DNA of 64,000 nucleotides, taken from Bimastos eiseni (Eukaryota > Annelida > Clitellata > Crassiclitellata > Lumbricidae). Positions within the stretch are counted from its first letter, which is position 1. Every line of letters starts with the position of its first letter. Positions 1-64,000 of the stretch are shown here, piece after piece. The notes beneath the pieces are model-generated. The model did no database searches. It saw only the letters and a list, made by a program, of their open reading frames with translations, and was not told the origin of the DNA. The position numbers and the translations under genes were made by a program. Location: contig OY365815.1 in the NCBI GenBank assembly GCA_959347315.1, forward strand, positions 558,001-622,000, read 5' to 3'.

Positions 1-630
1 GGGAAACTAAGACTAACACATGGACCAGACGTGAAAAGAGTCCTAAAACTAAGAACACCGATAACAATCTCCTCCCTCCCAGTAGTCATTCCGTACAACC
101 CACTATCTATGCGCATATTTTATGAATGGAAGAAAATCCTCATGCAAGATAATAATACACTGCAGCATTACCGCATAATACCAGCCCACTCTAGAAATAG
201 GAACCTAAAAGAATTACTAGCTCCATGTAAAAATAAGCCTATAAAACCCACGCAAAATACTAACATAGGTTCAAACAAATGTAACACACCTTCATGCACA
301 CAATCATGCCCATACATAACAGTCTCCAAAACATACTCAAGCACATACACACGCCGCAAGTACACCATAATCAAGCGACTAGGCTGCCAAGGCACTAACA
401 CAATCTGCCTAATAACTTGTAGCGCCTGCAACGAACAATACATAGACCACACACAAGGCAAAGTAGTAGAAGGCCTATTAGAACACATCCACAATATAAC
501 GAATCAGCATAATAACCCACTAGCAAACCACTTCAACTCAAACAACCACTCACTAGAAAATGTTACAGTTATGCCAACAGTCACTGTTGCTGCATTAGAA
601 ATGGCTCTTTTCAGGCCAACAGTAATATAA
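1..630 (+). pseudogene. U0: GIY-YIG segment, 5' part of unit cut by window
   Basis: Only the GIY-YIG portion and 3' region of this unit are in view. The frame is open from position 1 to TAA at 628-630. It carries the LLAPCKNKPIKPTQ variant (Cys where other classes have Arg) and lacks the 9-bp deletion. Left inverted-repeat arm 467-520; TCA tract 735-812. Confidence 0.85.
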
Positions 631-698
631 TAGGTAGGCCTTCTGTGGGTTATTACGCTTATTTGTTATATTGTGGATGTGTCCTAATAGGCCTTCTA
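467..698 (+). repeat. Long inverted repeat (54-bp arms) across GIY-YIG end and 3' non-coding region
   Basis: Left arm 467-520 and right arm 645-698 are reverse complements at 50 of 54 positions, with a 124-nt loop. The left arm codes for the helix that should carry the endonuclease Arg; the right arm lies after the stop codon. The arrangement recurs in all units that contain this region: arms lie 163-110 bases before and 15-68 bases after the last base of the GIY-YIG segment (for example 3942-3995 and 4120-4173). In units with the early TGA the left arm has an extra mismatch. A transcript would form a long hairpin. It also explains why open frames on opposite strands share the peptide MWMCSNRPS or MWMCPNRPS. 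Confidence 0.92.
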
Positions 699-966
699 TT
701 CGTCCTCATCAAACTCAGCAGCATCGGCACTGCATCGTCGTCATCATCATCCTCACCATCATCATCATCATCATCATCATCATAATCATTATCATCATCA
801 TCATCACCACCACCCCAACCATTACCGCCATGATCACATCCACCAGCATCAATATCATTAGCATCATCAGACCTCACCCGCCATCTGTGATTCTCCCATC
901 AACGAACTGTGCCCGTGCTCAACAATCACCTCGTGACTCGACACCTGACCCTGACCCTGACCCTAG
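631..966 (+). other. Non-coding part of the monomer: 3' region, (TCA)n tract and linker (U0 copy)
   Basis: Between the GIY-YIG stop and the next RT segment lie about 100 bases of 3' region including the right inverted-repeat arm, an imperfect TCA tract at 735-812, and a linker of about 150 bases rich in ATCA/CCA remnants. The linker ends in CCTGAC-type hexamers and CCCTAGG. I see no coding signal, promoter or RNA gene. The same region recurs between every pair of units. The TCA tract may be the microsatellite-like 3' tail of the original insertion, with the linker as flanking DNA captured at amplification; that is inference. Confidence 0.8.
735..812 (+). repeat. Imperfect (TCA)n microsatellite tract
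   Basis: About 78 bp of TCA/CAT repeats interrupted by CCTCACCA and TAATCATTA. The tract is present in every unit with lengths of about 51 to 98 bp, and is the main source of monomer length variation. In-frame reading gives poly-Ile on + and poly-Asp on -, which are artefacts of the triplet repeat. Confidence 0.97.
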
Positions 967-967
967 G
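935..967 (+). repeat. Short CCCTGA/CCCTAA-like hexamer run at the 5' edge of the PLE fragment
   Basis: The linker ends in four degenerate hexamers of the CCCTAA type, read in most units as CCTAAC CCTGAC CCTGAC CCTAGG, and as CCTGAC-only before CCTAGG in U0. It resembles the C-rich strand of the common animal telomere repeat, but only one of the four matches exactly. It abuts the point where RT-like coding begins. Confidence 0.6.
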
Positions 968-2370
968 CCCTGGCCAACAAACATCCATCATACATTCAGG
1001 ACGCCTATGACTTCATATACAGAATCAGAGACACTACAATAAAACCAAACTATATCTTAGTCACAGGTGATGTCACAGCATTATATACAGATATGAACGT
1101 AGATAGAACCATCACTACTGTAAAAGAATTCTTCCGTAAAAATCCAAAAACTAACAGACCAGACGCTGAACTCTTAGAACTCCTGGAAATAGCAATGAAA
1201 ACTGATGACTTCTCCTTCTGCAACAAACTCTTCCCACAAATGTTTGGGACAGCTATGAGGGAAGAACCTTTGCGCGTTACTTAGCAAACATGTACCTGGT
1301 AGAATTTGACCAAAAAGCAATGGAGGCCTTCCACATTCACCCACTTGACTTCTTCCGGTTTCTTGACGATATCTCCTTCATATGACCCGGTACTGTCGAG
1401 GAGCTAAAACAATATGAGGCATTTCTAAATTCTTTAATCACTGACATTACAGTAACCTTAACATACAATGACACTGAAATATTAACTTCCTTGACACAAC
1501 GACTTCTAGATACACAGTCCAGGACAGGACTACACTGCAGACGAGAGTTTATTTTAAACAGACAGACACGCACCATTTACTGCACAGCTCATCATTCCAT
1601 CCCAAACACACATTCACTGGCATTCTGAAATCCCAAATTTTAAGATTTAAGAGATTATCTTCATTTAATTTAGAACGGACTTCGATTACTCATATAAGAC
1701 ACTATTTGACAGTCCGATACACAGAGGATATATAGCAAACGACTACTAAGTGAAACTAAGACTAACTCATGGACCAGACGTGAAAAGAGTCCTAAAACTA
1801 AGAACACCGATAACAATCTCCTCCCTCCCAGTAGTCATTCCGTACAACCCACTATCTATGCGCATATTATATGAATGGAAGAAATTCCTCATGCAAGATA
1901 ATAATACACTGCAGCATTACCGCATAATACCAGCCCACTCTAGAAATAGGAACCTAAAAGCTCCACGTAAAAATAAGCCTATAAAACACACGCAAAATAC
2001 TAACATAGGTTCAAACAAATGTAACACACCTTCATGCACACAATCATGCCCATACGCAACAGTCTCCAAAACATACTCAACCACATACACACGCCGCAAG
2101 TACACCATAATCAAGCGACTAGGCTGCCAAGGCACTAACACAATCTACCTAATAACTTGTAGCGCCTGCAACGAACAATATATAGACCACACACAAGGCA
2201 AAGCAGTAGAAGGCCTATTAGAACACATCCACAATATAACGAATCAGCATAATAACCCACTAGCAAACCACTTCAACTCAAACAACTACTCACTAGAAAA
2301 TGTTACAGTTATGCCAACAGTCACTGTTGCTGCATTAGAAATGGCTCTTTTCAGGCCAACAGTAATATAA
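967..2370 (+). pseudogene. U1: PLE unit, class c RT, open GIY-YIG
   Basis: RT-a 967-1284 and RT-b 1290-1735. RT-b has TGA at 1383-1385 in place of the Trp after motif C, and a 2-bp AT insertion near 1480 (class c). The GIY-YIG segment (1750-2370) has the 9-bp deletion (NLKAPRK) but, unlike other 9-bp-deleted block 1 units, no early TGA, so it is a mosaic. TCA tract 2475-2540. Confidence 0.85.
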
Positions 2371-2496
2371 TAGGTAGGCCTTCTGTGGGTTATTACGCTT
2401 ATTTGTTATATTGTGGATGTGTTCTAATAGGCGTTCTATTCGTCCTCATCAAACTCAGCAGCATCGGCACTGCATCGTCGTCATCATCATCCTCAC

Positions 2497-2534
<38 letters not shown>

Positions 2535-2694
2535 CCACCACCCCAACCATTACCGCCATGATCACATCCACCAGCACCATTATCTTATGCATCATCAGAC
2601 CTCACCCGCCATCTGTGATTCTCCCATCAACGAACTGTGCCCGTGCTCAACAATCACCTCGTGATTCGACGCCTAACCCTGACCCTGACCCTAG

Positions 2695-3012
2695 GCCCTG
2701 GCCAACAAACATCCATCATACATTAAGGACGCATATGACTTCATAAACAGAATCAGAGACCCCACAATAAAACCACACTATATCTTAGTCACAGGTGATG
2801 TAACAGCATTACATACAGATATGAACGTAGATAGAACCATCACTACTGTAAAAGAATTCTTCCGTAAAAATCCAAAAACCAACAGACTAGACGCTGAACT
2901 CTTAGAACTCCTGGAAATAGCAATGAAAACTGATGACTTCTCCTTCTGCAACAAACTCTTCCCACAAATGTTTCGGACAGCTATGAGGGAAGAACCATTG
3001 CACGTAACTTAG
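2695..3012 (+). pseudogene. PLE reverse transcriptase segment a (motifs A and B), reference copy in U2
   Basis: Open frame from the codon after the in-frame TAG at 2692-2694 to the TAG at 3010-3012. It reads into an RT palm just upstream of motif A (KDAYDFINRI), then motif A (GDVTAL then HTDMN in this unit, GDVTALYTDMN in others), with the first catalytic Asp, and ends after motif B (PQMF then GTAM-like). RT finger motifs 1 and 2 are absent, so the element is 5'-truncated. In PLEs this palm polymerises cDNA from the element RNA. The frame is lost just after motif B by a one-base-type shift found in every unit. The ATG at 2821 is internal to the domain and need not be a start. Confidence 0.85.
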
Positions 3013-3017
3013 CAAAC

Positions 3018-3461
3018 ATGTACCTGGTAGAATTTGACCAAAAAGCAATGGAGGCCTTCCACATTCACCCACTTGACTTTTTCAGGTTTCTTGACGATAT
3101 CTTCTTCATATGGCCCGGTACTGTCGAGGAGCTAAAACAATATGAGGCATTTCTAAATTCTTTAATCCCTGACATTACAGTAACCTTAACATACAATGAC
3201 ACTGAAATTAACTTCCTTGACACAACGATTTCTAGATACACAGACCAGGACAGGACTACACTGCAGACGAGAGTTTATTTTAAACAGACAGACACGCACC
3301 AATTACTGCACAGGTCATCATTCCATCCCAAACACACATTCACTGGCATTCTGAAATCCCAAATTTTAAGATTTAAGAGATTATCTTCATTTAATTTAGA
3401 ACGGACTTCGATTACTCATGTAAGACACTATTTGACAGTCCGTTACACAGAGGATATATAG
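3018..3461 (+). pseudogene. PLE reverse transcriptase segment b (motif C to thumb), reference copy in U2
   Basis: This frame continues the same RT domain in another phase. Reading backwards from ATG 3018 the phase still gives RT-like residues ending in LAN, so the true break lies about 15-25 bases upstream. Visible parts are NMYLVEFD, motif C (RFLDDIFFIWPGT, the YxDD equivalent with both Asp present), LNSLIPDITVT, INFLDTTI, and the thumb-like stretch KQTDTHQLLH then SFHPKHTFTGILKSQ and RFKRLSS, which is typical of PLEs. It ends at a TAG produced by an extra TA in GATATATAG; units U5 and U23 lack this insertion. This is one of the best preserved copies, but still not translatable with segment a. 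Confidence 0.88.
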
Positions 3462-3475
3462 CAAACGACTACTAA

Positions 3476-4105
3476 GGGAAACTAAGACTAACACATGGAC
3501 CAGACGTGAAAAGAGTCCTAAAACTAAGAACACCGATAACAATCTCCTCCCTCCCAGTAGTCATTCCGTACAACCCACTATCTATGCGCATATTTTATGA
3601 ATGGAAGAAAATCCTCATGCAAGATAATAATACACTGCAGCATTACCGCATAATACCAGCCCACTCTAGAAATAGGAACCTAAAAGAATTACTAGCTCCA
3701 TGTAAAAATAAGCCTATAAAACCCACGCAAAATACTAACATAGGTTCAAACAAATGTAACACACCTTCATGCACACAATCATGCCCATACATAACAGTCT
3801 CCAAAACATACTCAAGCACATACACACGCCGCAAGTACACCATAATCAAGCGACTAGGCTGCCAAGGCACTAACACAATCTGCCTAATAACTTGTAGCGC
3901 CTGCAACGAACAATACATAGACCACACACAAGGCAAAGTAGTAGAAGGCCTATTAGAACACATCCACAATATAACGAATCAGCATAATAACCCACTAGCA
4001 AACCACTTCAACTCAAACAACCACTCACTAGAAAATGTTACAGTTATGCCAACAGTCACTGTTGCTGCATTAGAAATGGCTCTTTTCAGGCCAACAGTAA
4101 TATAA
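3476..4105 (+). pseudogene. Degenerate GIY-YIG endonuclease segment of the PLE, reference copy in U2
   Basis: Open frame from the codon after TAA 3473-3475 to TAA 4103-4105. It encodes the end of the RT connection (LRTPITISSLPVVIPYNPLS), a Cys cluster (CNTPSCTQSC) and a GIY-YIG-like domain: TIYLITCSACNEQYI, then an EHIHNI helix and PLANHF. In PLEs this nuclease nicks target DNA. Here the YIG-like triplet reads YID, the position where the family has its catalytic Arg (helix before EHI) is Gly, and the frame ends soon after, without the later catalytic Glu region. It is therefore probably inactive. A GTG at 3506 is not a credible eukaryotic start. Confidence 0.8.
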
Positions 4106-4441
4106 TAGGTAGGCCTTCTGTGGGTTATTACGCTTATTTGTTATATTGTGGATGTGTCCTAATAGGCCTTCTATTCGTCCTCATCAAACTCAGCAGCATC
4201 GGCACTGCATCGTCGTCATCATCATCCTCACCATCATCATCATCATCATCATCATCATAATCATTATCATCATCATCATCACCACCACCCCAACCATTAC
4301 CGCCATAATCACATCCACCAGCACCAATATCATTAGCATCATCAGACCTCACCCGCCATCTGTGATTCTCCCATCAACGAACTGTGCCCGTGCTCAACAA
4401 TCACCTCGTGACTCGACACCTAACCCTGACCCTGACCCTAG

Positions 4442-5845
4442 GCCCTGGCCAACAAACATCCATCATACATTCAGGACGCCTATGACTTCATATACAGAAT
4501 CAGAGACACTACAATAAAACCAAACTATATCTTAGTCACAGGTGATGTCACAGCATTATATACAGATATGAACGTAGATAGAACCATCACTACTGTAAAA
4601 GAATTCTTCCGTAAAAATCCAAAAACTAACAGACCAGACGCTGAACTCTTAGAACTCCTGGAAATAGCAATGAAAACTGATGACTTCTCCTTCTGCAACA
4701 AACTCTTCCCACAAATGTTTGGGACAGCTATGAGGGAAGAACCTTTGCGCGTTACTTAGCAAACATGTACCTGGTAGAATTTGACCAAAAAGCAATGGAG
4801 GCCTTCCACATTCACCCACTTGACTTCTTCCGGTTTCTTGACGATATCTCCTTCATATGACCCGGTACTGTCGAGGAGCTAAAACAATATGAGGCATTTC
4901 TAAATTCTTTAATCACTGACATTACAGTAACCTTAACATACAATGACACTGAAATATTAACTTCCTTGACACAACGACTTCTAGATACACAGTCCAGGAC
5001 AGGACTACACTGCAGACGAGAGTTTATTTTAAACAGACAGACACGCACCATTTACTGCACAGCTCATCATTCCATCCCAAACACACATTCACTGGCATTC
5101 TGAAATCCCAAATTTTAAGATTTAAGAGATTATCTTCATTTAATTTAGAACGGACTTCGACTACTCATGTAAGACACTATTTGACAGTCCGATACACAGA
5201 GGATATATAGCAAACGACTACTAAGTGAAACTAAGACTAACTCATGGACCAGACGTGAAAAGAGTCCTAAAACTAAGAACACCGATAACAATCTCCTCCC
5301 TCCCAGTAGTCATTCCGTACAACCCACTATCTATGCGCATATTATATGAATGGAAGAAATTCCTCATGCAAGATAATAATACACTGCAGCATTACCGCAT
5401 AATACCAGCCCACTCTAGAAATAGGAACCTAAAAGCTCCACGTAAAAATAAGCCTATAAAACACACGCAAAATACTAACATAGGTTCAAACAAATGTAAC
5501 ACACCTTCATGCACACAATCATGCCCATACGCAACAGTCTCCAAAACATACTCAACCACATACACACGCCGCAAGTACACCATAATCAAGCGACTAGGCT
5601 GCCAAGGCACTAACACAATCTACCTAATAACTTGTAGCGCCTGCAACGAACAATACATAGACCACACACAAGGCAAAGTAGTAGAAGGCCTATGAGAACA
5701 CATCCACAATATAACGAATCAGCATAATAACCCACTAGCAAACCACTTCAACTCAAACAACCACTCACTAGAAAATGTTACAGTTATGCCAACAGTCACT
5801 GTTGCTGCATTAGAAATGGCTCTTTTCAGGCCAACAGTAATATAA
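4442..5845 (+). pseudogene. U3: PLE unit, class c RT, GIY-YIG with early stop
   Basis: RT-a to 4759. RT-b begins at 4765 and is broken by TGA 4858-4860 and the AT insertion. The GIY-YIG segment starts 5225, has the 9-bp deletion and stops at TGA 5693-5695 (TTA to TGA in the helix that should carry the Arg). Tract 5950-6033. Confidence 0.85.
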
Positions 5846-6187
5846 TAGGTAGGCTTTCTGTGGGTTATTACGCTTATTTGTTATATTGTGGATGTGTTCT
5901 AATAGGCGTTCTATTCGTCCTCATCAAACTCAGCAGCATCGGCACTGCATCGTCGTCATCATCATCCTCACCATCATCATCATCATCATCATCATCATAA
6001 TCATCATCATCATCATCATCATCATCACCACCACCCCAACCATTACCGCCATGCTCACATCCACCAGCACCATTATCATATGCATCATCAGACCTCACCC
6101 GCCATCTGTGATTCTCCCATCAACGAACTGTGCCCGTGCTCAACAATCACCTCGTGATTCGACGCCTAACCCTGACCCTGACCCTAG

Positions 6188-7589: not shown

Positions 7590-7925
7590 TAGGTAGGCTT
7601 TCTGTGGGTTATTACGCTTATTTGTTATATTGTGGATGTGTTCTAATAGGCGTTCTATTCGTCCTCATCAAACTCAGCAGCATCGGCACTGCATCGTCGT
7701 CATCATCATCCTCACCATCATCATCATCATCATCATCATCATAATCATTATCATCATCATCATCACCACCACCCCAGCCATTACCGCCATGATCACATCC
7801 ACCAGCACCATTATCATATGTATCATCAGACCTCACCCGCCATCTGTGATTCTCCCACCAACGAACTGTGCCCGTGCTCAACAATCACCTCGTGATTCGA
7901 CACCTAACCCTGACCCTGACCCTAG

Positions 7926-9334: not shown

Positions 9335-9652
9335 TAGGTAGGCTTTCTGTGGGTTATTACGCTTATTTGTTATATTGTGGATGTGTTCTAATAGGCGTTC
9401 TATTCGTCCTCATCAAACTCAGCAGCATCGGCACTGCATCGTCGTCATCATCATCCTCACCATCATCATCATCATCATCATCATCATAATCGTCACCACC
9501 TCAGCCATTACCGCCATGATCACATCCACCAGCACCATTATCATATGTATCATGAGACCTCACCCGCCATCTGTGATTCTCCCACCAACGAACTGTGCCC
9601 GTGCTCAACAATCACCTCGTGATTCGACACCTAACCCTGACCCTGACCCTAG

Positions 9653-11056: not shown

Positions 11057-11398
11057 TAGGTAGGCTTTCTGTGGGTTATTACGCTTATTTGTTATATTGT
11101 GGATGTGTTCTAATAGGCGTTCTATTCGTCCTCATCAAACTCAGCAGCATCGGCACTGCATCGTCGTCATCATCATCCTCACCATCATCATCATCATCAT
11201 CATCATCATAATCATCATCATCATCATCATCATCATCACCACCACCCCAGCCATTACCGCCATGATCACATCCACCAGCACCATTATCATATGTATCATC
11301 AGACCTCACCCGCCATCTGTGATTCTCCCACCAACGAACTGTGCCCGTGCTCAACAATCACCTCGTGATTCGACACCTAACCCTGACCCTGACCCTAG

Positions 11399-12809: not shown

Positions 12810-13151
12810 TAGGTAGGCCTTCTGTGGGTTATTACGCTTATTTGTTATATTGTGGATGTGTCCTAATAGGCCTTCTATTCGTCCTCATCAAACTCAGCAG
12901 CATCGGCACTGCATCGTCGTCATCATCATCCTCACCATCATCATCATCATCATCATCATCATAATCATTATCATCATCATCATCATCATCATCACCACCC
13001 CAACCATTACCGCCATGCTCACATCCACCAGCACCATTATCATATGCATCATCAGACCTCACCCGCCATCTGTGATTCTCCCATCAACGAACTGTGCCCG
13101 TGCTCAACAATCACCTCGTGATTCGACGCCTAACCCTGACCCTGACCCTAG

Positions 13152-24991: not shown

Positions 24992-25333
24992 TAGGTAGGC
25001 TTTCTGTGGGTTATTACGCTTATTTGTTATATTGTGGATGTGTTCTAATAGGCGTTCTATTCGTCCTCATCAAACTCAGCAGCATCGGCACTGCATCGTC
25101 GTCATCATCATCCTCACCATCATCATCATCATCATCATCATCATAATCATCATCATCATCATCATCATCATCACCACCACCCCAGCCATTACCGCCATGA
25201 TCACATCCACCAGCACCATTATCATATGTATCATCAGACCTCACCCGCCATCTGTGATTCTCCCACCAACGAACTGTGCCCGTGCTCAACAATCACCTCG
25301 TGACTCGACACCTAACCCTGACCCTGACCCTAG

Positions 25334-50686: not shown

Positions 50687-50880
50687 GTCACTGCTCTCTC
50701 TGTTTCTTCTACTGTTTGATTGGCCACTGCTCTCTCTGTTTCTTCTACTGTTTGATTGGTCACTGCTCTCTCTGTTTCTTCTGCTGTTTGATTGGGCACT
50801 GCTCTCTCTGTTTCTTCTACTGTTTGATTGGTCACTGCTCTCTCTGTTTCTTCTGCTGTTTGATTGGGCACTGCTCTCTC

Positions 50881-51120
50881 TGTTTCTTCTACTGTTTGAT
50901 TGGTCACTGCTCTCTCTGTTTCTTCTACTGTTTGACCTTTCACTGCTCTCTCTCTCCTTCTTCTGCTGTTTGATACATCACTGCTCTCTCTCTCTGTTTC
51001 TTCTACTGTTTCATTTTTCACTGCTCTCGCTGTTTCTTATACTGTTTGATTGGTCACTGCTCTCTCTGTTTCTTCTACTGTTTGATACATCACTGCTTTC
51101 TCTGTTTCTTATACTGTTTG
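50881..51120 (+). repeat. Higher-order block in the minisatellite, copy 1
   Basis: Base for base the same as 53341-53580, 2460 bp downstream, including unusual units with CCTTCTTCTGCTG, CATTTTTCACTG and CTTATACTG. The match breaks just after 51150. Confidence 0.9.
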
Positions 51121-53340
51121 ATTGGTCACTGCTCTCTCTGTTTCTTCTACTGTTTGATTGGTCACTACTCTCTCTGTTTCTTCTACTGTTTGATTGGTCA
51201 CTGCTCTCTCTGTTTCTTCTACTGTTTGATTGGTCACTGCTCTGTCGGTTTCTTCTACTGTTTGATTGGTCAATGCTCTCTCTGTTTCTTCTACTGTTTG
51301 ATACATCACTGCTCTCTCTCTTTCCTCTGCTGTTTGATACGTCACTGCTCTCTGTGTTTCTTCTACTGTTTGATTGGTCACTGCTCTCTCTGTTTCTTCT
51401 ACTGTTTGATTGGCCACTGCTGTCTCTGTTTCTTCTACTCTTTGATACGTCACTGCTCTTTCTGTTTTTTCTACTGTTTGATTGGTCACTGCTCTCTTTC
51501 TTTTTCTTCTACTGTTTGATTGGTCACTGCTCTCTCTGTTTCTTCTACTGTTTGATTGGTCACTGCTCTCTCTGTTTCTTTAACTGTTTGATTGGTCACT
51601 GCTATCTCTGTTTTCTCTACTGTTTGATTGGTCACTGCTCTCTCTGTTTCTTCTACTGTTTGATTGGTCACTGCACTCTGTGTTTCTTCTAGTGTTTGAT
51701 ACATCACTGCTCTCTCTGTTTCTTCTACTGTTTGATACATCACTGCTCTCTCTCTTTCCTCTGCTGTTTGATACGTCACTGCTCTCTGTGTTTCTTCTAC
51801 TGTTTGATTGGTCACTACTCTCTCTGTTTCTTCTACTGTTTGATTGGTCACTGCTGTCTCTGTTTCTTCTACTCTTTGATACGTCACTGCTCTTTCTGTT
51901 TTTTCTACTGTTTGATTGGTCACTGCTCTCTTTCTTTTTCTTCTACTGTTTGATTGGTCACTGCTCTTTCTGTTTCTTCTACTGTTTGATTGGTCACTGC
52001 TCTCTCTGTTTCTTTTACTGTTTGATTGGTCACTGCTCTCTCTGTTTCTTCTACTGTTTCATTGGTCACTGCTCTCTCTGTTTCTTCTACTGTTTGATTG
52101 GTCACTGCTATCTCTGTTTTCTCTACTGTTTGATTGGTCACTGCTCTCTCTGTTTCTTTTACTGTTTCATTGGTCACTGATCTCGCTGTTTCTTATACTG
52201 TTTGATTGGTCACTGCTCTCTCTGTTTCTTCTACTGTTTGATACATCACTGCTCTCTCTGTTTCTTCTACTGTTTGATTGGTCACTGCTATCTCTGTTTT
52301 CTCTACTGTTTGATTGGTCACTGCTCTCTCTGTTTCTTCTACTGTTTGATTGGTCACTGCACTCTCTGTTTCTTCTAGTGTTTGATACATCACTGCTCTC
52401 TCTGTTTCTTCTACTGTTTCATTGGTCACTACTCTCTCTGTGTCTTCTACTGTTTGATACGTCACAGCTCTCTCTGTTTCTTCTACTGTTTCATTGGTCA
52501 CTGCTCTCTCTGTTTCTTCTACTGTTTGATTGGTCACTGCTCTCTCTGTTTCTTCTACTGTTTGATTGGTCAATGCTCTCTCTGTTTCTTCTACTGTTTG
52601 ATTGGTCACTGCTCTCTCTGTTTCTTCTACTGTGTGATACATCACTGCTCTCTCTGTTTCTTCTACTGTTTGATTGGTCACTACTCTCTCTGTTTCTTCT
52701 ACTGTTTGATTAGTCACTGCACTCTCTGTTTCTTCTACTGTTTTATTGGTCACTGCTCTCTCTGTTTCTTCTACTGTTTGATTGGTCACTCCTCTCTCTT
52801 TTTCTTCTACTGTTTGATCTTTCACTGCACTCTTTGTTTCTTCTACTGTTTGATACATCACTGCTCTCTGTGTTTCTTCTACTGTTTGATTGGTCACTGC
52901 TCTCTCTGTTTCTTCTACTGTTTGATTAGTCACTGCACTCTCTGTTTCTTCTACTGTTTTATTGGTCACTGCTCTCTCTGTTTCTTCTACTGTTTGATTG
53001 GTCACTCCTCTCTCTTTTTCTTCTACTGTTTGATCTTTCACTGCACTCTTTGTTTCTTCTACTGTTTGATACATCACTGCTCTCTCTGTTTCTTCTACTG
53101 TTTGATTGGTCAATGCTCTCTCTGTTTCTTCTACTGTTTGATTGGTCACTGCTCTCTCTGTTTCTTCTACTCTTTGATAGGTCACTGCTCACTCTCTGTT
53201 TCTTCTACTGTTTGATACTTCACTGCTCTCTGTGTTTCTTCTACTGTTTGATTGGTCACTACTCTCTCTGTTTCTTCTACTGTTTGATTGGTCACTGCAC
53301 TCTCTGTTTCTTCTACTGCTTGATTGGTCACTGCTCTCTC

Positions 53341-53580
53341 TGTTTCTTCTACTGTTTGATTGGTCACTGCTCTCTCTGTTTCTTCTACTGTTTGACCTTT
53401 CACTGCTCTCTCTCTCCTTCTTCTGCTGTTTGATACATCACTGCTCTCTCTCTCTGTTTCTTCTACTGTTTCATTTTTCACTGCTCTCGCTGTTTCTTAT
53501 ACTGTTTGATTGGTCACTGCTCTCTCTGTTTCTTCTACTGTTTGATACATCACTGCTTTCTCTGTTTCTTATACTGTTTG
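53341..53580 (+). repeat. Higher-order block in the minisatellite, copy 2
   Basis: Second copy of the block at 50881-51120. It shows duplication of a multi-unit segment rather than independent unit-by-unit growth. Confidence 0.9.
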
Positions 53581-54260
53581 ATTGGTCACTGCTCTCTCTG
53601 TTTCTTCTACTGTTTGATTGGTCACTGCTATCTCTGTTTTCTCTACTGTTTGATTGGTCACTGCTCTCTCTGTTTCATCTACTGTTTGATTGGTCACTGC
53701 ACTCTCTGTTTCTTCTAGTGTTTGATACATCACTGCTCTCTCTGTTTCTTCTACTGTTTCATTGGTCACTACTCTTTCTGTGTCTTCTACTGTTTGATAC
53801 GTCACAGCTCTCTCTGTTTCTTCTACTGTTTGATTGGTCACTGCTCTCTCTGTTTCTTCTACTGTGTGATACATCACTGCTCTCTCTGTTTCTTCTACTG
53901 TTTGGTTGGTCAATGCTCTCTCTGTTTCTTCTAGTGTTTGATTGGTCACTGCTCTCTCTGTTTCTTCTACTGTGTGATACATCACTGCTCTCTCTGTTTC
54001 TTCTACTGTTTGATACATCACTGCTCTCTGTGTTTCTTCTACTGTTTGACTGGTCACTACACTCTCTGTTTCTTCTACTGTTTGATTGGTCACTGCACTC
54101 TCTGTTTCTTATACTGTTTGATTGGTCACTGCTCTCTCTTTTTCTTCTACTGTTTGATTGGTCACTGCTCTCTCTGTTTCTTCTACTGTTTGACCTTTCA
54201 CTGCTCTCTCTGTTTCTTCTACTGTTTGATTGGTCACTGCTCTCTCTGTTTCTTCTACTG

Positions 54261-54840
54261 TTTGATAGATCACTGCTCTCTCTCTCCTTCTTCTGCTGTT
54301 TGATACATGACTGCTCTCTCTGTTTCTTCTACTGTGTGATACATCACTGCTCTCTCTGTTTCTTCTACTGTTTGATTTGTCACTGCTCTCTCTGTTTCTT
54401 CTACTGTTTGATTGGTCACTGCTCTCTCTGTTTCTTCTACTGTGTGATACATCACTGCTCTCTCTGTTTCTTCTACTGTTTGATACATCACTGCTCTCTG
54501 TGTTTCTTCTACTGTTTGATTGGTCACTACTCTCTCTGTTTCTTCTACTGTTTGATAGATCACTGCTCTCTCTCTCCTTCTTCTGCTGTTTGATACATGA
54601 CTGCTCTCTCTGTTTCTTCTACTGTGTGATACATCACTGCTCTCTCTGTTTCTTCTACTGTTTGATTTGTCACTGCTCTCTCTGTTTCTTCTACTGTTTG
54701 ATTGGTCACTGCTCTCTCTGTTTCCTCTACTGTGTGATACATCACTGCTCTCTCTGTTTCTTCTACTGTTTGATACATCACTGCTCTCTGTGTTTCTTCT
54801 ACTGTTTGATTGGTCACTACTCTCTCTGTTTCTTCTACTG
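54261..54840 (+). repeat. Tandem pair of 290-bp higher-order units in the minisatellite
   Basis: Two adjacent 290-bp blocks, 54261-54550 and 54551-54840, each start with TTTGATAGATCACTG and the CCTTCTTCTGCTG unit. A third copy lies at 55129-55418. 290 is eight 36-bp units plus 2 bases, so each copy moves the reading phase. Confidence 0.9.
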
Positions 54841-55645
54841 TTTGATTGGTCACTGCACTCTCTGTTTCTTAAACTGTTTGATTGGTCACTGCTCTCTCTG
54901 TTTCTTCTACTGTTTGATTAGTCACTGCTCTCTCTGTTTCTTTTACTGTTTGATTGGTGACTGCTCTCTCTTTTTCTTCTACTGTTTGATTTGTCACTGC
55001 TCTCTCTGTTTCTTCTACTGTTTGATACATCACTGCTCTCTCTGTTTCTTCTACTGTTTGACCTTTCACTGCTCTCTTTGTTTCTTCTACTGTTTGATTG
55101 GTCACTACTCTCTCTGTTTCTTCTACTGTTTGATAGATCACTGCTCTCTCTCTCCTTCTTCTGCTGTTTGATACATGACTGCTCTCTCTGTTTCTTCTAC
55201 TGTGTGATACATCACTGCTCTCTCTGTTTCTTCTACTGTTTGATTTGTCACTGCTCTCTCTGTTTCTTCTACTGTTTGATTGGTCACTGCTCTCTCTGTT
55301 TCTTCTACTGTGTGATACATCACTGCTCCCTCTGTTTCTTCTACTGTTTGATACATCACTGCTCTCTGTGTTTCTTCTACTGTTTGATTGGTCACTACTC
55401 TCTCTGTTTCTTCTACTGTTTGATTGGTCACTGCACTCTCTGTTTCTTAAACTGTTTGATTGGTCACTGCTCTCTCTGTTTCTTCTACTGTTTGATTGGT
55501 GACTGCTCTCTCTTTTTCTTCTACTGTTTGATTTGTCACTGCTCTCTCTGTTTCTTCTACTGTTTGATACATCACTGCTTTCTCTGTTTCTTCTACTGTT
55601 TGACCTTTCACTGCTCTCTTTGTTTCTTCTACTGTTTGATTCTAG

Positions 55646-57047
55646 GCCTAGGCCAACAAACATCCATCATACATTAAGGACGCCTATGACTTCATAAACA
55701 TAATCAGAGACACTACAATAAAACCACACTATATCTTAGTCACAGGTGATGTCACACTATTATATACAGATATGAACGTAGATAGAACCATCACTACTGT
55801 AAAAGAATTCTTCCGTAAAAATCCAAAAACTTACAGACCAGACGCTGAACTCTTAGAACTCCTGGAAATAGCAATGAAAACTGATGACTTCTCCTTCTGC
55901 AACAAACTCTTCCCACAAATGTTTGGGACAGCTATGGGGGAAGAATTTTTGCACGTAACTTAGCAAACATGTACCTGGTGGAATTCGACCAAAAAGCAAT
56001 GGAGGCCTTCCACATTCACCCACTTGACTTCTTCCGGTTTCTTGACGATATCTCCTTCATATGGCCCGGTACAGTCGAGGAGCTAAAACAATATGAGGCA
56101 TTTCTAAATTCTTTAATCCCTGACATTACAGGAACCTTAACATACAATGACACTGAATTTAACTTCCTTGACACAACGATTTCTAGCTACACAGACCAGG
56201 ACAGGACTACACTGCAGACGAGAGTTTATTTTAAACAGACAGACACGCACCAATTACTGCACAGCTCATCATTCCATCCCAAACACACATTCACTGGCAT
56301 TCTGAAATCCCAAATTTTAAGATTTAAGAGATTATCTTCATTTAATTTAGAACGGACTTCGATTACTCATGAAAGACACTATTTGACAGTCCGTTACACA
56401 GAGGATATATAGCAAACGACTACTAAGGGAAACCAAGACTAACACATGGACCAGACGTGAAAAGAGTCCTTAAACTAAGAACACCGATAATAATCTCCTC
56501 CCTCCCAGTAGTCATTCCGTACAACCCACTGTCTATGAGCATATTTTATTAATGGAAAAAAATCCTCATGCAAGATAATAATACACTGCAGCATTACCGC
56601 ATAATACCAGCCCACTCTAGAAATAGGAACCTAAAAGCTCCACGTAAAAATAGGCCTATAAAACCCACGCAAAATACTAACATAGGTTCAAACAAATGTA
56701 ACACACCTTCATGCACACAATCATGCCCATACATAACAGTCTCCAAAACATACTCAAGCACATACACACGCCGCAAGTACACCATAAACAAGCGACTAGG
56801 CTGCCAAGGCACTAACACAATCTACCTAATAACTTGTAGCGCCTGCAACGAACAATACATAGACCACACACAAGGCAAAGTAGTAGAAGGCCTATTAGAA
56901 CACATCCACAATATAACGAATCAGCATAATAACCCACTAGCAAACCACTTCAACTCAAACAACCACTCACTAGAAAATGTTACAGTTATGCCAACAGTCA
57001 CTGTTGCTGCATTAGAAATGGCTCTTTTCAGGCCAACAGCAATATAA
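55646..57047 (+). pseudogene. U30: PLE unit right of the minisatellite
   Basis: RT-a to 55963 with GTAMGEEFL; RT-b 55969-56412 is open with DDISFIWPGT and no AT insertion, but with private changes (TGTLTYND, EFNFLDTT, THERHYL). GIY-YIG region 56427-57047 is broken by TAA 56550-56552 (Glu of the YEWKK stretch), then open from 56568. Tract is short, 57152-57211. Confidence 0.86.
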
Positions 57048-57365
57048 TAGGTAGGCCATCTGTAAGTTATGACGCTTATTTGTTATATTGTGGATGTGTT
57101 CTAATAGGCCTTCTATTCGTCGTCATCAAACTCAGCAGCATCGGCACTGCATCGTCGTCATCATCATCCTCACCATCATCATCATAATCATCATCATCAC
57201 CATCACCACCACACCAACCTTTACCGCCATGATCACATCCACCAGCACCATTATCATATGCATCATCAGACCTCACCCGCCATCTGTGATTCTCCCATCA
57301 ACGAACTGTGCCCGTGCTCAACAATCACCTCGTGATTCGACACCTAACCCTGACCCTGACCCTAG

Positions 57366-58766
57366 GCCCTGGCCAACAAACAACCATCATACATTAAGGA
57401 CGCCTATGACTCCATAAACAGAATCAGAGACACTACAATAAAACCACACTATATCTTAGTCACAGGTGATGTCACAGCATTATATACAGATATGAACGTA
57501 GATAGAACCATCACTACCGTAAAAGAATTCTTCCGTAAAAATCCAAAAACTAACAGACCAGACGCTGAACTCTTAGAACTCCTGGAAATAGCAATGAAAA
57601 CTGATGACTTCTCCTTCTGCAACAAACTCTTCCCACAAATGTTTGGGACAGCTATGGGGGAAGAACCTTTGCACGTAACTTAGCAAACCTGTAACTGGTA
57701 GAATTCGACCAAAAAGCAATGGAGGCCTTCCACATTCACCCACTTGACTTCTTCCGGTTTCTTGACGATATCTCCTTCATATGGCCCGGTACTGTCGAGG
57801 GGCTAAAACAATATGAGGCATTTCTAAATTCTTTAATCCCTGACATTACAGTAACCTTAACATACAATGACACTGAAATTAACTTCCTTGACACAACGAT
57901 TTCTAGATACACAGACCAGGACAGGACTACACTGCAGACGAGAGTTTATTTAAACAGACAGACACGCACCAATTACTGCACAGCTCATCATTCCATCCCA
58001 AACACACATTCACTGGCATTCTGAAATCCCAAATTTTAAGATTTAAGAGATTATCTTCATTTAATTTAGAACGGACTTCGATTACTCATGTAAGACACTA
58101 TTTGACAGTCCGTTACACAGAGGATATATAGCAAACGACTACTAAGGGAAACTAAGACTAACACATGGACCAGACGTGAAAAGAGTCCTAAAACTAAGAA
58201 CACCGATAACAATCTCCTCCCTCCCAGTAGTCATTCCGTACAACCCACTATCTGTGCGCATATTTTATGAATGGAAGAAAATCCTCATGCAAGATAATAA
58301 TACACTGCAGCATTACCGCATAATACCAGCCCACTCTAGAAATAGGAACCTAAAAGCTCCACGTAAAAATAAGCCTATAAAACCCTCGCAAAATACTAAC
58401 ATAGGTACAAACAAATGTAACACACCTTCATGCACACAATCATGCCCAGACATAACAGTCTCCAAAACATACTCAAGCACATACACACGCCGCAAGTACA
58501 TCACAATCAAGCGACTAGGCTGCCAAGGCACTAACACAATCTACCTAATAACTTGTAGCGCCTGCAACGAACAATACATAGACCACACACAAGGCAAAGT
58601 AGTATAAGGACTATTAGAACACATCCACAATATAACGAATGAGCATAATAACCCACTAGCAAACCACTTCAACTCAAACAACCACTCACTAGAAAATGTT
58701 ACAGTTATGCGAACAGTCACTGTTGCTGCATTAGAAATGGCTCTTTTCAGGCCAACAGTAATATAA
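57366..58766 (+). pseudogene. U31: PLE unit with private breaks
   Basis: RT-a to 57683. RT-b has TAA at 57692-57694 (Tyr of NMYLV), and loses one T near 57948, which ends its frame at 58024. GIY-YIG from 58146 stops at TAA 58605-58607 (Glu of VVEGL). Tract 58871-58921, among the shortest in the window. Confidence 0.86.
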
Positions 58767-59075
58767 TAGGTAGGCCTTCTGTGGGTTATTACGCTTATTT
58801 GTTATATTGTGGATGTGTTCTAATAGGCCTTCTATTCGTCCTCATCAAACTCAGCAGCATCGGCACTGCATCGTCGTCATCATCATCCTCACCATCATCA
58901 TCATCATCATCATGACCACTACCCCAACCATTACCGCCATGATCACTTCCACCAGCACCATTATCATATGCATCATCAGACCTCACCCGCCATCTGTGAT
59001 TCTCTCATCAACGAACTGTGCCCGTGCTCAACAATCACCTCGTGATTCGACACCTAACCCTGACCCTGACCCTAG

Positions 59076-60477
59076 GCCCTGGCCAACAAACATCCATCAT
59101 ACATTAAGGACGCCTATGACTTCATAAACAGAATCAGAGACACTACAATAAAACCACACTATATCTTAGTCACAGGTGATGTTACAGCATTATATACAAA
59201 TATGAACGTAGATAGAACCATCACTTCTGTAAGAGAATTCTTCCGTAAAAATCCAAAAACTAAAAGACTAGACGCTGAACTCTTAGAACTCCCGGAAATA
59301 GCAATGAAAACTGATGACTTCTCCTTCTGCAACAAACTCTTCCCACAAATGTTTGGGACAGCTATGGGGGAAGAACCTTTGCACGTAACTTAGCAAACCT
59401 GTAACTGGTAGAATTCGACCAAAAAGCAATGGAGGCCTTCCACATTCACCCACTAGACTTCTTCCGGTTTCTTGACGATATCTCCTTCATATGGCCCGGT
59501 ACTGCCGAGGAGCTAAAACAATATGAGGTATTTCTAAATTCTTTAATCCCTGGCATTACAGTAACCTTAACATACAATGACACTGAAATTAACTTCCTTG
59601 ACACAACGATTTCTAGATACACAGACCAGGACAGGACTACACTGCAGACGAGAGTTTATTTTAAACAGACAGACACGCACCAATTACTGCACAGCTCATC
59701 ATTCCATCCCAAACACACATTCACTGGCATTCTGAAATCCAAAATTTTAAGATTTAAGAGATTATCTTCATTTAATTTAGAACGGACTTCGATTACTCAT
59801 GTAAGACACTATTTGACAGTCCGTTACACAGAGGATATATAGCAAACGACTACTAAGGGAAACTAAGACTAACACATGGACCAGACGTGAAAAGAGTCCT
59901 AAAACTAAGAACACCGATAACAATCTCCTCCCTCTCAGTAGTCATTCCATACAACCCACTATCTCTGCGCATATTTTATGAATGGAAGAAAATCCTCATG
60001 CAAGATAATAATACACTGCAGCATTACCGCATAATACCAGCCTAATCTAGAAATAGGAACCTAAAAGCTCCACGTAAAAATAAGCCTATAAAACCCACGC
60101 AAAATACTAACATAGGTTCAAACAAATGTAACACATCTTCATGCACACAATCATGCCCATACATAACAGTCTCCAAAACATACTCAAGCACATACACACG
60201 CCGCAAGTACACCATAATCAAGCGACTAGGCTGCCAAGGCACGAACACAATCTACCTAATAACTTGTGGCGCCTGCAACGAGCAATACATAGACCACACA
60301 CAAGGCAAAGTAGTAGAAGGCCTATTAGAACACATCCACAATATAACGAATCAGCATAATAACCCACTAGCAAACCACTTCAACTCAAACAACCACTCAC
60401 TAGAAAATGTTACAGTTATGCCAACAGTCACTGTTGCTGCATTAGAAATGGCTCTTTTCAGGCCAACAGTAATATAA
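59076..60477 (+). pseudogene. U32: PLE unit with private breaks and following partial duplication
   Basis: RT-a to 59393 with Leu to Pro (LLELPEI) and Lys to Arg changes. RT-b has the same CTGTAA change as U31 (TAA 59402-59404), then is open 59429-59842. GIY-YIG from 59857 has TAA 60043-60045 replacing the His of PAHSR. First TCA tract 60582-60641. Confidence 0.85.
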
Positions 60478-60603
60478 TAGGTAGGCCTTCTATGGGTTAT
60501 TACGCTTATTTGTTATATTGTGGATGTGTCCTAATAGGCCTTCTATTCGTCGTCATCAAACTCGGCAGCATCGGCACTGCATCGTCGTCATCATCATCCT
60601 CAC

Positions 60604-60635
<32 letters not shown>

Positions 60636-60752
60636 CCACCACCCCAACCATTACCGCCATGATCACATCCACCAGCACCATTATCATAAGCATCATCAGA
60701 CCTCTCCCGCCATCTGTGATTCTCCTATCAACGAACTGTGCCCGTCCTAGAA

Positions 60753-61068
60753 CTATTAGAACACATCCACAATCTAACGAATCAGCATATTAACCCACTA
60801 GCAAACCACTTCAACTCAAACAACCACTCACTAGAAAATGTTACAGTTATGCCAACAGTCACTGTTGCGGCATTAGAAATGGCTCTTTTCAGGCCAACAG
60901 TAATATAATAGGTAGGCCTTCTATGGGTTATTACGCTTATTTGTTATATTGTGGATGTGTTCTAATAGGCCTTCTAATCGTCCTCATCAAACTCGGCAGC
61001 ATCGGCACTGCATCGTCGTCATCATCATCCTCACCATCATCATCATCATCCTCACCATCATCATCATC

Positions 61069-61100
<32 letters not shown>

Positions 61101-61215
61101 CATCACCACCCCAAAGCATTACCGCCATGATCACATCCACCAGCACCATTATCATATGCATCATCAGACCTCACCCGCCATCTGTGATTCTCCCATCAAC
61201 GAACTGTGCCCGTCC
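60753..61215 (+). repeat. Partial duplication inside U32 (GIY-YIG end, 3' region, TCA tract)
   Basis: From CTATTAGAACACATCC at 60753 the sequence repeats 60322 onward, offset 431, through the nuclease end (TAA at 60906-60908), the right inverted-repeat arm and a longer TCA tract (61012-61109), and rejoins the normal unit after GTGCCCGTCCT. The two copies differ by scattered substitutions. It accounts for the 2188-bp spacing. The left breakpoint lies in the left inverted-repeat arm. Confidence 0.9.
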
Positions 61216-61263
61216 TCAACAATCACCTCGTGATTCGACACCTAACCCTGACCCTCACCCTAG

Positions 61264-62667
61264 GTCCTGGCCAACAAACATTCATCATACATTAAGGACG
61301 CCTATGACTTCATAAACAGAATCAGAGACACTACAATAAAACCACACTATATCTTAGTCACAGGTGATGTCACAGCATTATATACAGATATGAACGTAGA
61401 TAGAACCATCACTACTGTAAAAGAATTCTTCCGTAAAAATCCAAAAACTAACAGACTAGACGCTGAACTCTTAGAACTCCTCGAAATAGCAATGAAAACT
61501 GATGACTTCTCCTTCTGCAACAAACTCTTCCCACAAATTTTTGGGACAGCTATGGGGGAAGAACCTTTGCACGTCACTTAGCAAACATGTACCTGGTAGA
61601 ATTTGACCAAAAAGCAATGGAGGCCTTTCACATTCACCCACTTGACTTCTTCCGGTTTCTTGACGATATCTCCTTCATATGGCCCGGTACTGTCGAGGAG
61701 CTAAAACAATATGAGGCATTTCTAAATTCTTTAATCCCTGACATTACAGTAACCTTAACATACAATGACACTGAAATATTAACTTCCTCGACACAACGAT
61801 TTCTAGATACACAGACCAGGACAGGACTACACTGCAGACGAGAGTTTATTTTAAACAGACAGACACGCACCAATTACTGCACAGCTCATCATTCCATCCC
61901 AAACACACATTCACTGGCATTCTGATATCCCAAATTTTAAGATTTAAGAGATTATCTTCATTTAATTTAGAACGGACTTCGATTACTCATGTAAGACACT
62001 ATTTGACAGTCCGTTACACAGAGGATATATAGCAAACGACTACTAAGGGAAACTAAGACTAACACATGGACCAGACGTGAAAAGAGTCCTAAAACTAAGA
62101 ACACCGATAACAATCTCCTCCCTCCCAGTAGTCATTCCGTACAACCCACTATCTATGCGCATATTTTATGAATGGAAGAAAATCCTCATGCAAGATAATA
62201 ATACACTGCAGCATTACCGCATAATACCAGCCCACTCTAGAAATTGGAACCTAAGAGCTCCACGTAAAAATAAGCCTATAAAACCCACGAAAAATACTAA
62301 CATAGGTTCAAACAAATGTAACACACCTTCATGCACACAATCATACCCATACATAACAGTCTCCAAAACATACTCAAGCACATACACACGCCGCAAGTAC
62401 ACCATAATCAAGCGACTAGGCTGCCAAGGCACTAACACAATCTACCTAATAACTTGTAGCGCCTGCAACGAACAATACATAGACCACACACATGGCAAAG
62501 TAGTAGAAGGCCTATTAGAACACATCCACAATATAACGAATCAGCATAATAACCCACTAGCAAACCACTTCAACTCAAACAACCACTCACTAGAAAATGT
62601 TACAGTTATGCCAACAGTCACTGTTGCTGCATTAGAAATGGCTCTTTTCAGGCCAACAGTAATATAA
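61264..62667 (+). pseudogene. U33: PLE unit, AT insertion without the TGA
   Basis: RT-a to 61581 with Met to Ile (PQIFGTAM). RT-b from 61587 keeps the Trp after motif C (FIWPGT) but has the AT insertion near 61777, ending the frame at 61925. GIY-YIG 62047-62667 is open, with the 9-bp deletion and private changes (NLRAPRK, QSYPY, HTHGKVV). Tract 62772-62831. Confidence 0.86.
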
Positions 62668-62793
62668 TAGGTAGGCCATCTGTAAGTTATTACGCTTATT
62701 TGTTATATTGTGGATGTGTTCTAATAGGCCTTCTATTCGTCCTCATCAAACTCAGCAGCATCGGCACTGCATCGTCGTCATCCTCATCCTCAC

Positions 62794-62825
<32 letters not shown>

Positions 62826-62985
62826 CCTCCACCCCAACCATTACCGCCATGATCACATCCACCAGCACCATTATCATATGCTTCATCAGACCTCACCTGC
62901 CATCTGTGATTCTCCCTTCAACGAACTGTGCCCGTCCTCAACAATCACCTCGTGATTCGACACCTAACCCTGACCCAGACCCTAG

Positions 62986-64000
62986 GCCCTGGCCAACAAA
63001 CATCCATCATACATTAAGGACGCCTATGACTTCATAAGCAGAATCAGAGACACTACAACAAAACCACACTATATCTTAGTCACAGGTGATGTCATAGCAT
63101 TATATACAGATATGAACGTAGATAGAACCATCACTACTGTAAAAGAATTCTTCCGTAAAAATCCAAAAACTAACAGACCAGACGCTGAACTCTTAGAACT
63201 CCTGGAAATAGCAATGAAAACTGATGACTTCTCCTTCTGCAACCAACTCTTCCCACAAATGTTTGGGACAGCTATGGGGGACGAACCTTTGCACGTAACT
63301 TAGCAAACATGTACCTGGTAGAATTTGACCAAAAAGCAATGGAGGCCTTCCACATTCACCCACTTGACTTCTTCCGGTTTCTTGACGATATCTCCGTCAT
63401 ATGGCCCGGTACTGTCGAGGAGCTAAAACAATATGAGGCATTTCTAAATTCTTTTATCCCTGACATTACAGTAACCTTAACATACAATGACACTGAAATT
63501 AACTTCCTTGACACAACGATTTCTAGATACACAGACCAGGACAGGACTACACTGCAGACGAGAGTTTATTTTAAACAGACAGACACGCACCAATTACTGC
63601 ACAGCTCATCATTCCATCCCAAACACACATTCACTGGCATTCTGAAATCCCAAATTTTAAGATTTAAGAGATTATCTTTATTTTAATTAGAACGGACTTC
63701 GATTACTCATGTAAGACACTATTTGACAGTCCGTTACACAGAGGATATATAGCAAACGACTACTACGGGAAACTAAGACTAACACATGGACCAGACGTGA
63801 AAAGAGTCTTAAAACTAAGAACACCGATAACAATCTCCTCCCTCCCAGTAGTCATTCCGTACAACCCACTATCTATGCGCATATTTTATGAATGGAAGAA
63901 AATCCTCATGCAAGATAATAATACACTGCAGCATTACCGCATAATACCAGCCCACTCTAGAAATAGGAACCTAAGAGCTCCACGTAAAAATAAGCCTATA
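62986..64000 (+). pseudogene. U34: PLE unit cut by the window end; TAA replaced by TAC
   Basis: RT-a to 63303 (GTAMGDE); RT-b 63309-63686 with Phe to Val (DDISVIW), ended early by a small rearrangement CTTTATTTTAATTAG that gives TAA. The codon before the GIY-YIG segment is TAC (63764-63766) where the other units have TAA. The GIY-YIG segment starts at 63767 and is open to the window edge. Confidence 0.86.

What the first reader, a model, noticed from the sequence alone, without database searches (positions are those of the whole stretch)
1..64000. A satellite DNA made of a 5'-truncated Penelope-like element
The sequence shows 34 anchored head-to-tail copies of an RT plus GIY-YIG fragment at about 1.74 kb spacing. 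PLEs are known to form tandem partial copies, but a long homogenised array of one defective PLE fragment behaves as a satellite. Inference: one frameshifted insertion with its flank was amplified by recombination rather than by repeated retrotransposition.
Basis: partly seen in the sequence, partly recalled or inferred. Interest (0 to 1): 0.75.

Follow-up and report, generated by a model that had tools for sequence, protein, structure and literature searches.

The report
Chromosome-end satellite from a telomere retroelement
A huge tandem repeat next to a chromosome end of an unnamed animal is built from a dead fragment of a retroelement whose longer relatives in the same genome sit mainly at chromosome ends and carry a DNA-cutting domain with altered active-site residues.

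Summary
The array is real: 35 anchors, 34 intervals, 32 of them 1711-1753 bp, mean divergence 2.0%. The unit is an internal Penelope-like element (PLE) fragment cut at both ends, joined to an inverted PLE piece, a CAT microsatellite, a copy of a subtelomeric element's 3' end and degenerate telomeric repeats. One frame break is shared by 34 of 34 copies and the old reading frame shows no constraint: DNA-level amplification of a dead unit. The window lies 558 kb from a (CCCTAA)n telomere, in a block from 25 to 735-750 kb. On C8 telomeric repeats run directly into a satellite unit. Outside the window: of 51 strong placed hits to this PLE lineage, 37 lie within 60 kb of 13 scaffold ends, 37 of 37 with 5' outward; 11 on C13 point inward, 3 are internal. 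Six of six endonuclease cores read lack the YIG glycine and the arginine, while 101 of 103 database relatives keep the core. The satellite shares its replacements with a C9-end copy. Closest known: Athena/terminons and a Penelope-related catfish satellite. Best reading: a telomere-attached, endonuclease-dead PLE lineage, one truncated copy of which was amplified as subtelomeric satellite.

The parts
1..64000 (+). Part of a subtelomeric satellite block, head-to-tail units of about 1.74 kb, all on one strand
57366..58766 (+). Exemplar unit (57366-59075): internal PLE ORF fragment from the RT core to the GIY-YIG-like domain, truncated at both ends, with a frame break
   Evidence: boundaries by tblastn and alignment on the equivalent unit 2698-4105; frame break fixed in 34 of 34; stop codon checked
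58781..58834 (-). Inverted copy of the unit's own endonuclease-coding segment (54 nt; 49 of 54 complementary in this unit, 93% in the unit at 3942-4173)
58869..58913 (+). CAT microsatellite of the linker
58986..59051 (+). Copy of the 3' end of a subtelomeric element found next to the C10 telomere and, in part, at the C17 right end
59052..59075 (+). Degenerate telomeric repeats abutting the PLE 5' break; 20 of 24 match (CCCTAA)n
   Evidence: the same 30-nt tract in 100 of the 127 junctions that a pattern matched in 254 kb
50687..55641 (+). 36-bp minisatellite, 137 copies, replacing the middle of one unit; its right junction falls at the PLE 5' break
59875..62064 (+). 2190-bp interval with an internal partial duplication of the endonuclease/linker region
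56445..64000 (+). Right-hand units, more diverged (three simple units, 2.5-3.53% from every other simple unit)

Best explanation
The window is part of a subtelomeric satellite of about 0.7 Mb. Its unit descends from one truncated, rearranged copy of a PLE lineage that lives mainly at chromosome ends. Shown: strong hits to the lineage's N-terminal part are clustered at scaffold ends with the 5' end outward, many in long open frames. At one end (C2R) two copies are separated by telomeric repeats, and one 3' end (C8) runs into telomeric repeats. In the copies read, the GIY-YIG domain is kept but lacks core active-site residues; in one subfamily the ORF ends before the domain. Inferred: these elements no longer cut DNA. 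Their RT uses the chromosome's own TTAGGG 3' end as primer, so the element's 3' end joins CCCTAA repeats and the 5'-truncated end is recapped by telomerase. One such dead, capped copy (PLE fragment plus subtelomeric 3' end plus telomeric repeats) was then amplified as DNA by unequal exchange or break-induced replication between chromosome ends, giving a satellite that can itself be capped by telomeric repeats (C8).
For: Array and homogenisation. Dead founder: frame break in 34 of 34; 86 nonsynonymous and 21 synonymous variants against a neutral expectation of 75.4% nonsynonymous (dN/dS about 1.33, p 0.26), 5 of them stops. Telomere at the C10 start, 1409 CCCTAA in 10 kb. Telomeric repeats run into a unit on C8. 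Linker end aligns over 89 nt with a C10 element followed by telomeric repeats; telomere-like tract 20/24, 0 of 200 Markov controls as high, best elsewhere in the unit 16. Terminal copies: 37 of 37 within 60 kb oriented 5' outward at 13 ends; 24 of these 37 have an open frame of at least 795 aa and no stop in the probed part (counted). Telomeric spacer and 5' truncation at C2R. 59-nt 3'UTR then CTAACCCTAACCC at C8. EN cores of 6 of 6 copies read lack Gly and Arg; 101 of 103 relatives intact; altered rows one clade, 96/78. Satellite and C9R share YIDHT and VVEGL, 86.8% nt over 250, 100/100 sisters; the glycine codon is aspartate in 33 of 33 satellite copies matched.
Against: The satellite at C11 (50 kb) and 11 strong PLE hits at C13 (134-182 kb) point inward, on scaffolds whose first 300 bp hold no telomeric repeats. 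Three strong hits are internal, and the 40 weaker hits, which I did not tabulate, include many internal fragments. The open frames can run through telomeric repeats, so their length alone does not prove an intact ORF; no copy was read in full, and 8 of the 37 terminal hits have a stop in the probed part. The type order in the array is not significantly non-random by my trigram shuffle (p 0.08 and 0.54). Only seven copies were read near the end of the ORF, four of them one subfamily, one (C13) not terminal. The C9R copy is 13% diverged over 250 nt, so it is not the immediate parent. The C8 telomere tract is flanked outward by Ns. Priming at telomeres is inferred. The 96/78 clade rests on 89 columns of 37 rows and midpoint rooting.
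Confidence: 0.76

Rival explanations
1. The array grew by serial terminal retrotransposition: each unit is a separate 5'-truncated cDNA added to a telomere, as in terminon head-to-tail arrays.
For: Units are separated by telomere-like repeats and on C8 and C10 the 5' side faces the telomere; two copies at C2R do look like this.
Against: 100 of the 127 junctions matched have the identical tract, and the units share one frame break (34 of 34); the internal deletion and inverted piece recur too (inverted repeat measured in two units). Independent cDNAs would differ in 5' end and telomere length.
Confidence: 0.08
2. A canonical PLE tandem with pLTRs, i.e. ordinary PLE tandem organisation.
For: PLEs are described as tandem or partial-tandem (PMC11167929, passages).
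Against: [quoted passage not shown] no Rfam family at gathering level in the window.
Confidence: 0.04
3. Assembly inflation of a short array, or misplacement of it near the telomere.
For: Several other scaffold ends begin with N gaps; reads were not available.
Against: No N in the 190 kb of flanks fetched; units differ and form subtypes; a second array on C8 is joined to telomeric repeats.
Confidence: 0.06
4. The block has been kept because it works as telomere-associated sequence: a recombination backup that lengthens ends when telomeres fail.
For: Subtelomeric place, telomeric repeats directly on a unit at C8, near-identical units kilobases apart.
Against: 14 of 16 left ends sampled once, at 50 kb, are negative (C8 among them, which has its array at 8-15 kb); right ends were not sampled for it except on C10; no functional data.
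Confidence: 0.15

Closest known systems
Athena/terminon EN-deficient PLEs of bdelloid rotifers
   Same: PLE RT, chromosome ends, 5' truncation by telomeric repeats, head-to-tail arrays (PMC6431247 and PMC3846280, passages). Terminons can carry GDSL esterase ORFs; the second ORF seen here looks GDSL-like by eye only.
   Different: Here the EN segment groups with relatives that have an intact GIY-YIG core, and most copies read still carry an altered domain fused to the RT ORF. Athena forms a separate clade and lacks the fused domain (passage), though terminons may hold stand-alone GIY-YIG-like genes (passage). No Athena sequence was compared here.
EN-containing PLEs (Penelope/Poseidon type, e.g. 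PAc of Anolis)
   Same: RT then GIY-YIG order; the read-through query is 51-65% identical to its twelve best hits, P0060-P0071; tandem habit (PMC11167929, outline and passages). The clade name is recalled; no Poseidon sequence was compared.
   Different: Core EN residues replaced; location mainly at scaffold ends; no pLTR seen in the satellite unit or at the one C2R junction read.
Harttia catfish satellite HviSat02-2707
   Same: Satellite with a kilobase unit related to Penelope (PMC11955569, passages).
   Different: Scattered, pericentromeric or without visible FISH signal, depending on the species, in the passages I saw; no telomeric repeats or inverted copy are mentioned there.
SART/TRAS and HeT-A/TART telomeric retrotransposons
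   Same: Retroelements at chromosome ends (abstract starts and passages).
   Different: Non-LTR elements, not PLEs.

Membership tests
Satellite DNA | Long head-to-tail array with homogenised units | tested here: met
Satellite DNA | Cytological location and copy number by FISH or reads | not testable with these tools
   assembly only; array from 25 to 735-750 kb of C10
Penelope-like elements | PLE-type RT homology | tested here: met
   65% identity over 99% to P0060; the relatives aligned have 635-812 aa. That they are PLEs rests on domain order and on recalled PLE motifs; Pfam finds GIY-YIG in P0001 and RVT_1 in P0008, neither in P0002
Penelope-like elements | GIY-YIG domain with active-site residues (EN-containing PLE) | tested here: not met
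   satellite and 6 of 6 copies read (five at ends, one on C13) lack Gly and Arg; 101 of 103 relatives have them
Penelope-like elements | pLTR flanks | tested here: inconclusive
   none in the satellite unit, whose element ends are missing; one C2R junction shows telomeric repeats instead; other full copies were not read
Telomere-associated EN-deficient PLEs (Athena type) | Copies at chromosome ends, 5' outward, telomeric repeats at the truncated 5' end | tested here: met
   for the lineage in this genome: 37 of 51 strong placed hits within 60 kb of ends, all 37 outward; telomeric repeats at the 5' truncation in the one junction read (C2R) and, degenerate, in the satellite
Telomere-associated EN-deficient PLEs (Athena type) | EN domain absent | tested here: inconclusive
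   absent in the one 613-aa-class copy sampled (C5R); present but altered in three subfamilies
Telomere-associated EN-deficient PLEs (Athena type) | Phylogenetic membership of the Athena clade | not tested
   no Athena sequence was in hand; the EN tree groups the lineage with EN-containing relatives
Telomere-associated EN-deficient PLEs (Athena type) | Hammerhead next to the 3' end | tested here: inconclusive
   no match in the window at gathering level nor in 7 kb at E<=5; 3' ends of the full copies were not scanned

The most novel reading that the evidence does not exclude
In this animal a PLE lineage nested among endonuclease-containing PLEs has become a telomere dweller by changing its GIY-YIG active site while keeping the domain, with a subfamily that has dropped the domain. 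That would be a separate, independent origin of telomere-attached PLEs caught midway, alongside TTAGGG telomeres, with one dead copy spreading as a telomere-capped subtelomeric satellite.
Probability: 0.52. Interest if true: 0.82.

Novelty: new variant of a known kind. Interest (0 to 1): 0.7.

Why it matters
[quoted passage not shown] The telomere-attached PLEs described in the passages I saw already lack the fused endonuclease. A genome with open-frame, active-site-altered and domain-less subfamilies at its ends would let the switch from cutting DNA to living off chromosome ends be tested directly. The satellite also shows how a telomeric retroelement junction can turn into a subtelomeric satellite that telomeric repeats cap directly.

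Tried and rejected
Rfam: no match at gathering level in the window; in the first 7 kb only sub-threshold C/D-box matches. Pfam on four broken ORFs: no RVT or GIY-YIG hit. PDB sequence search: two weak hits (E 0.34, 0.35), bacterial RTs. Viral contigs and genome contigs: no relative of P0060 in the first, no exact anchor in either. Order of unit types: suggestive (C-B-A four times) but not significant in my shuffle. The masked control for the telomere-like tract failed (reported 20 because the tract was not masked) and was redone (16). The Pfam check of the ORF upstream of the C8 PLE failed because I gave the wrong frame and was not repeated. The identity of the linker's subtelomeric 3' end (perhaps the PLE's own 3' UTR) stayed open. 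Papers: searches (satellite, tandem) gave the catfish precedent; one search found no paper; searches (telomeric or subtelomeric PLEs; one listed 25 of 27; enrichment) listed no active-site-dead telomeric PLE by title or abstract start. Of the papers I saw passages of eight (PMC11955569, PMC3124438, PMC12910113, PMC10294476, PMC11167929, PMC3846280, PMC10088271, PMC6431247), none in full; PMC3124438, PMC12910113 and PMC10294476 added nothing used here.
Full report
What is in the window. The array is real. One 24-base anchor occurs 35 times on the + strand, giving 34 intervals, of which 32 measure 1711-1753 bp. One interval (5879 bp) holds 137 copies of a 36-bp minisatellite, and one (2190 bp) holds a partial internal duplication. 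The 32 simple units differ by 1.98% on average, from 0 to 3.53%; the three simple units right of the minisatellite are the most diverged, at 2.5-3.53% from every other. Clustering gives subtypes, with neighbours in the order C-B-A four times, but my shuffle test of that order is not significant (p 0.08 and 0.54).

What a unit is made of. A read-through of one unit (468 aa, frames joined) matches 722 proteins at E<=1e-3, the best at 65% identity over 99%; the relatives aligned are 635-812 aa long. Homology begins inside the RT domain at LANKHPSYI and ends near ALFRPT, so about 260 N-terminal residues (by P0061) and about 34-56 C-terminal residues (by P0060, P0061, P0062) are missing. The linker starts with a 54-nt inverted copy of the unit's own endonuclease segment, 93% complementary in the unit examined and 49 of 54 in the exemplar, and continues with a CAT microsatellite. 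Its last 89 nt align, telomeric repeats included, with an element next to the C10 telomere, where (CCCTAA)n follows at the same point. In the satellite that point carries ACCTAACCCTGACCCTGACCCTAG, 20 of 24 identical to telomeric repeats; 0 of 200 first-order Markov versions of a unit reach that, and the best elsewhere in the unit is 16. The PLE 5' break follows directly.

The unit is dead and amplified as DNA. The distance across one frame break is the same, out of frame, in 34 of 34 copies. Variants in the former coding frame are 86 nonsynonymous and 21 synonymous, against 75.4% nonsynonymous expected without selection (p 0.26), five of them stops. A 2-nt indel splits the 32 aligned units 16 to 16. 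In 100 of the 127 junctions that my pattern matched (146 anchors in the 254 kb) the tract before the PLE is identical. A shared 5' end and frame break speak for amplification of one founder rather than repeated insertion.

Where it lies. The window is bases 558001-622000 of scaffold C10 in a 660-Mb, 118-contig assembly with 17 scaffolds of more than 20 Mb among the 19 whose lengths I saw. C10 begins with telomeric repeats, 1409 CCCTAA in the first 10 kb. All 254 kb from 468 to 722 kb are array, apart from the minisatellite, with 146 anchors forward and none reverse. Single samples at 30, 60, 100, 150, 200, 250, 300, 350, 400 and 440 kb are array on the + strand, the other 10 of the 20 samples are not (15 kb, and 750 kb or beyond; one of these is N). 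In one search 735 kb is array and 22 kb is not. The first exact anchor on C10 is at 25109. The whole genome has 457 forward and 25 reverse exact anchors; only the first places are listed, on C8 (4) and C10. Samples at 50 kb of 16 other left ends are array in 2 of 16, C12 forward and C11 reverse; right ends were not sampled for it, apart from two places on C10. On C8 about 65 telomeric repeats, preceded by Ns, run directly into a satellite unit at about 7.9 kb, and the short array ends at 15.4 kb, where TAACTCTAACTCTAACC precedes the next sequence.

The lineage lives mainly at scaffold ends. A probe for the N-terminal part, which the satellite lacks, gives 94 matches. I tabulated the 51 hits with E up to 1.4e-59 on the large scaffolds. 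Two of that strength on unplaced contigs were left out, as was the next one, on C17 (also outward, at the right end), and 40 weaker hits, many of them internal fragments. Of the 51, 37 lie within 60 kb of a scaffold end, at 13 ends, and 37 of 37 have their 5' end outward. Eleven lie at 134-182 kb of C13 pointing inward, on a scaffold whose first 300 bp hold no telomeric repeat, and three are internal. Counting ends, 13 of 13 are outward (sign p 1.2e-4), or 13 of 14 if C13 counts as an end. The binomial value treats copies as independent and should not be used. Of the 37, 24 have an open frame of at least 795 aa without a stop in the probed part and 8 have a stop there; open frames can run through telomeric repeats, and I read no copy in full. 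On C2R neighbouring copies start about 3.9 kb apart; between two of them at least 353 nt of mostly telomeric repeats are followed by a 5'-truncated upstream ORF. On C8 the ORF ends, a 59-nt 3' UTR follows, then telomeric repeats.

The endonuclease is altered. The EN core was read in six copies (C8L; C2R, C12L, C15R, C9R and C13). Six of six lack the glycine of the YIG motif and the arginine; four of six, one subfamily, also lack the first tyrosine and the histidine. A seventh copy (C5R, 613-aa class) ends its ORF before the domain. Of 120 listed relatives 103 cover the five positions, and 101 of 103 keep tyrosine, tyrosine, glycine and arginine; P0060 lacks the arginine, P0067 the glycine, the arginine and the histidine. 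A midpoint-rooted tree of 37 EN segments (four typed rows and 33 of the 40 relatives P0060-P0099 that aligned over more than 75 positions) puts the six altered rows on one side of a branch (96/78), inside a group of 16 rows (99/97), and makes the satellite sister of C9R (100/100). The tyrosine and glycine are named as active-site residues in PMC11167929 (figure legend passage); the role of the arginine and histidine is recalled. C9R and the satellite share YIDHT and VVEGL and are 86.8% identical over 250 nt; 33 of 33 satellite copies matched have aspartate for the glycine. So the changes came before the satellite, in copies with a long open frame.

How it most likely works. For EN-deficient PLEs, priming on exposed chromosome ends followed by telomeric repeats on the truncated 5' end is described in PMC3846280 (passages), and terminons form head-to-tail arrays truncated by telomeric repeats (PMC6431247, passages). 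The pattern here matches: outward 5' ends, telomeric repeats at the junctions read, no working endonuclease expected. That the RT uses the TTAGGG end as primer is inferred. The satellite then arose from one truncated, rearranged and capped copy by recombination; the exact event is inferred.

Against and open. The C11 and C13 exceptions, N gaps at several ends, few EN cores read, no read coverage, no Athena sequence in the tree, and the unidentified 3' end in the linker.

Comparison and score. A Penelope-related satellite is in print for Harttia fishes (PMC11955569, passages), and telomeric EN-deficient PLEs are well known. In the titles, abstract starts and passages that I saw I did not meet an active-site-dead GIY-YIG PLE at telomeres or a telomere-capped satellite made from it. 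I rate it a new variant of known kinds.

Noticed in passing
window 50687-55641: 36-bp minisatellite of 137 copies replaces the middle of one unit; its right junction lies within a few bases of the PLE 5' break.
   Followed up: partly
L112 (C8:15001-17000) about 392-1840, and L116: An upstream open frame of about 480 aa with an esterase-like (GDSL) look by eye precedes the PLE ORF on C8, with a short CCCTAA tract between them; a 5'-truncated version precedes a C2R copy. Domain not confirmed.
   Followed up: partly
one search list, e.g. G000:C3:1711086, C2:1732039, C14:1613519: A very uniform RT family with a 1265-aa open frame recurs, several copies 1-3 Mb from scaffold starts; others lie elsewhere.
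   Followed up: no
L009 8682-8770, L057 1036-1097, L074 end: A subtelomeric element 3' end with hairpin AATCAC-TTC-GTGATT and a T-run is followed by telomeric repeats at two of these three places and by CCTAAACCTAAACC at the third.
   Followed up: partly
P0060, P0067: Two database relatives from unnamed sources have altered endonuclease cores (P0060 lacks the arginine; P0067 the glycine, arginine and histidine), so the change may not be confined to this genome.
   Followed up: partly
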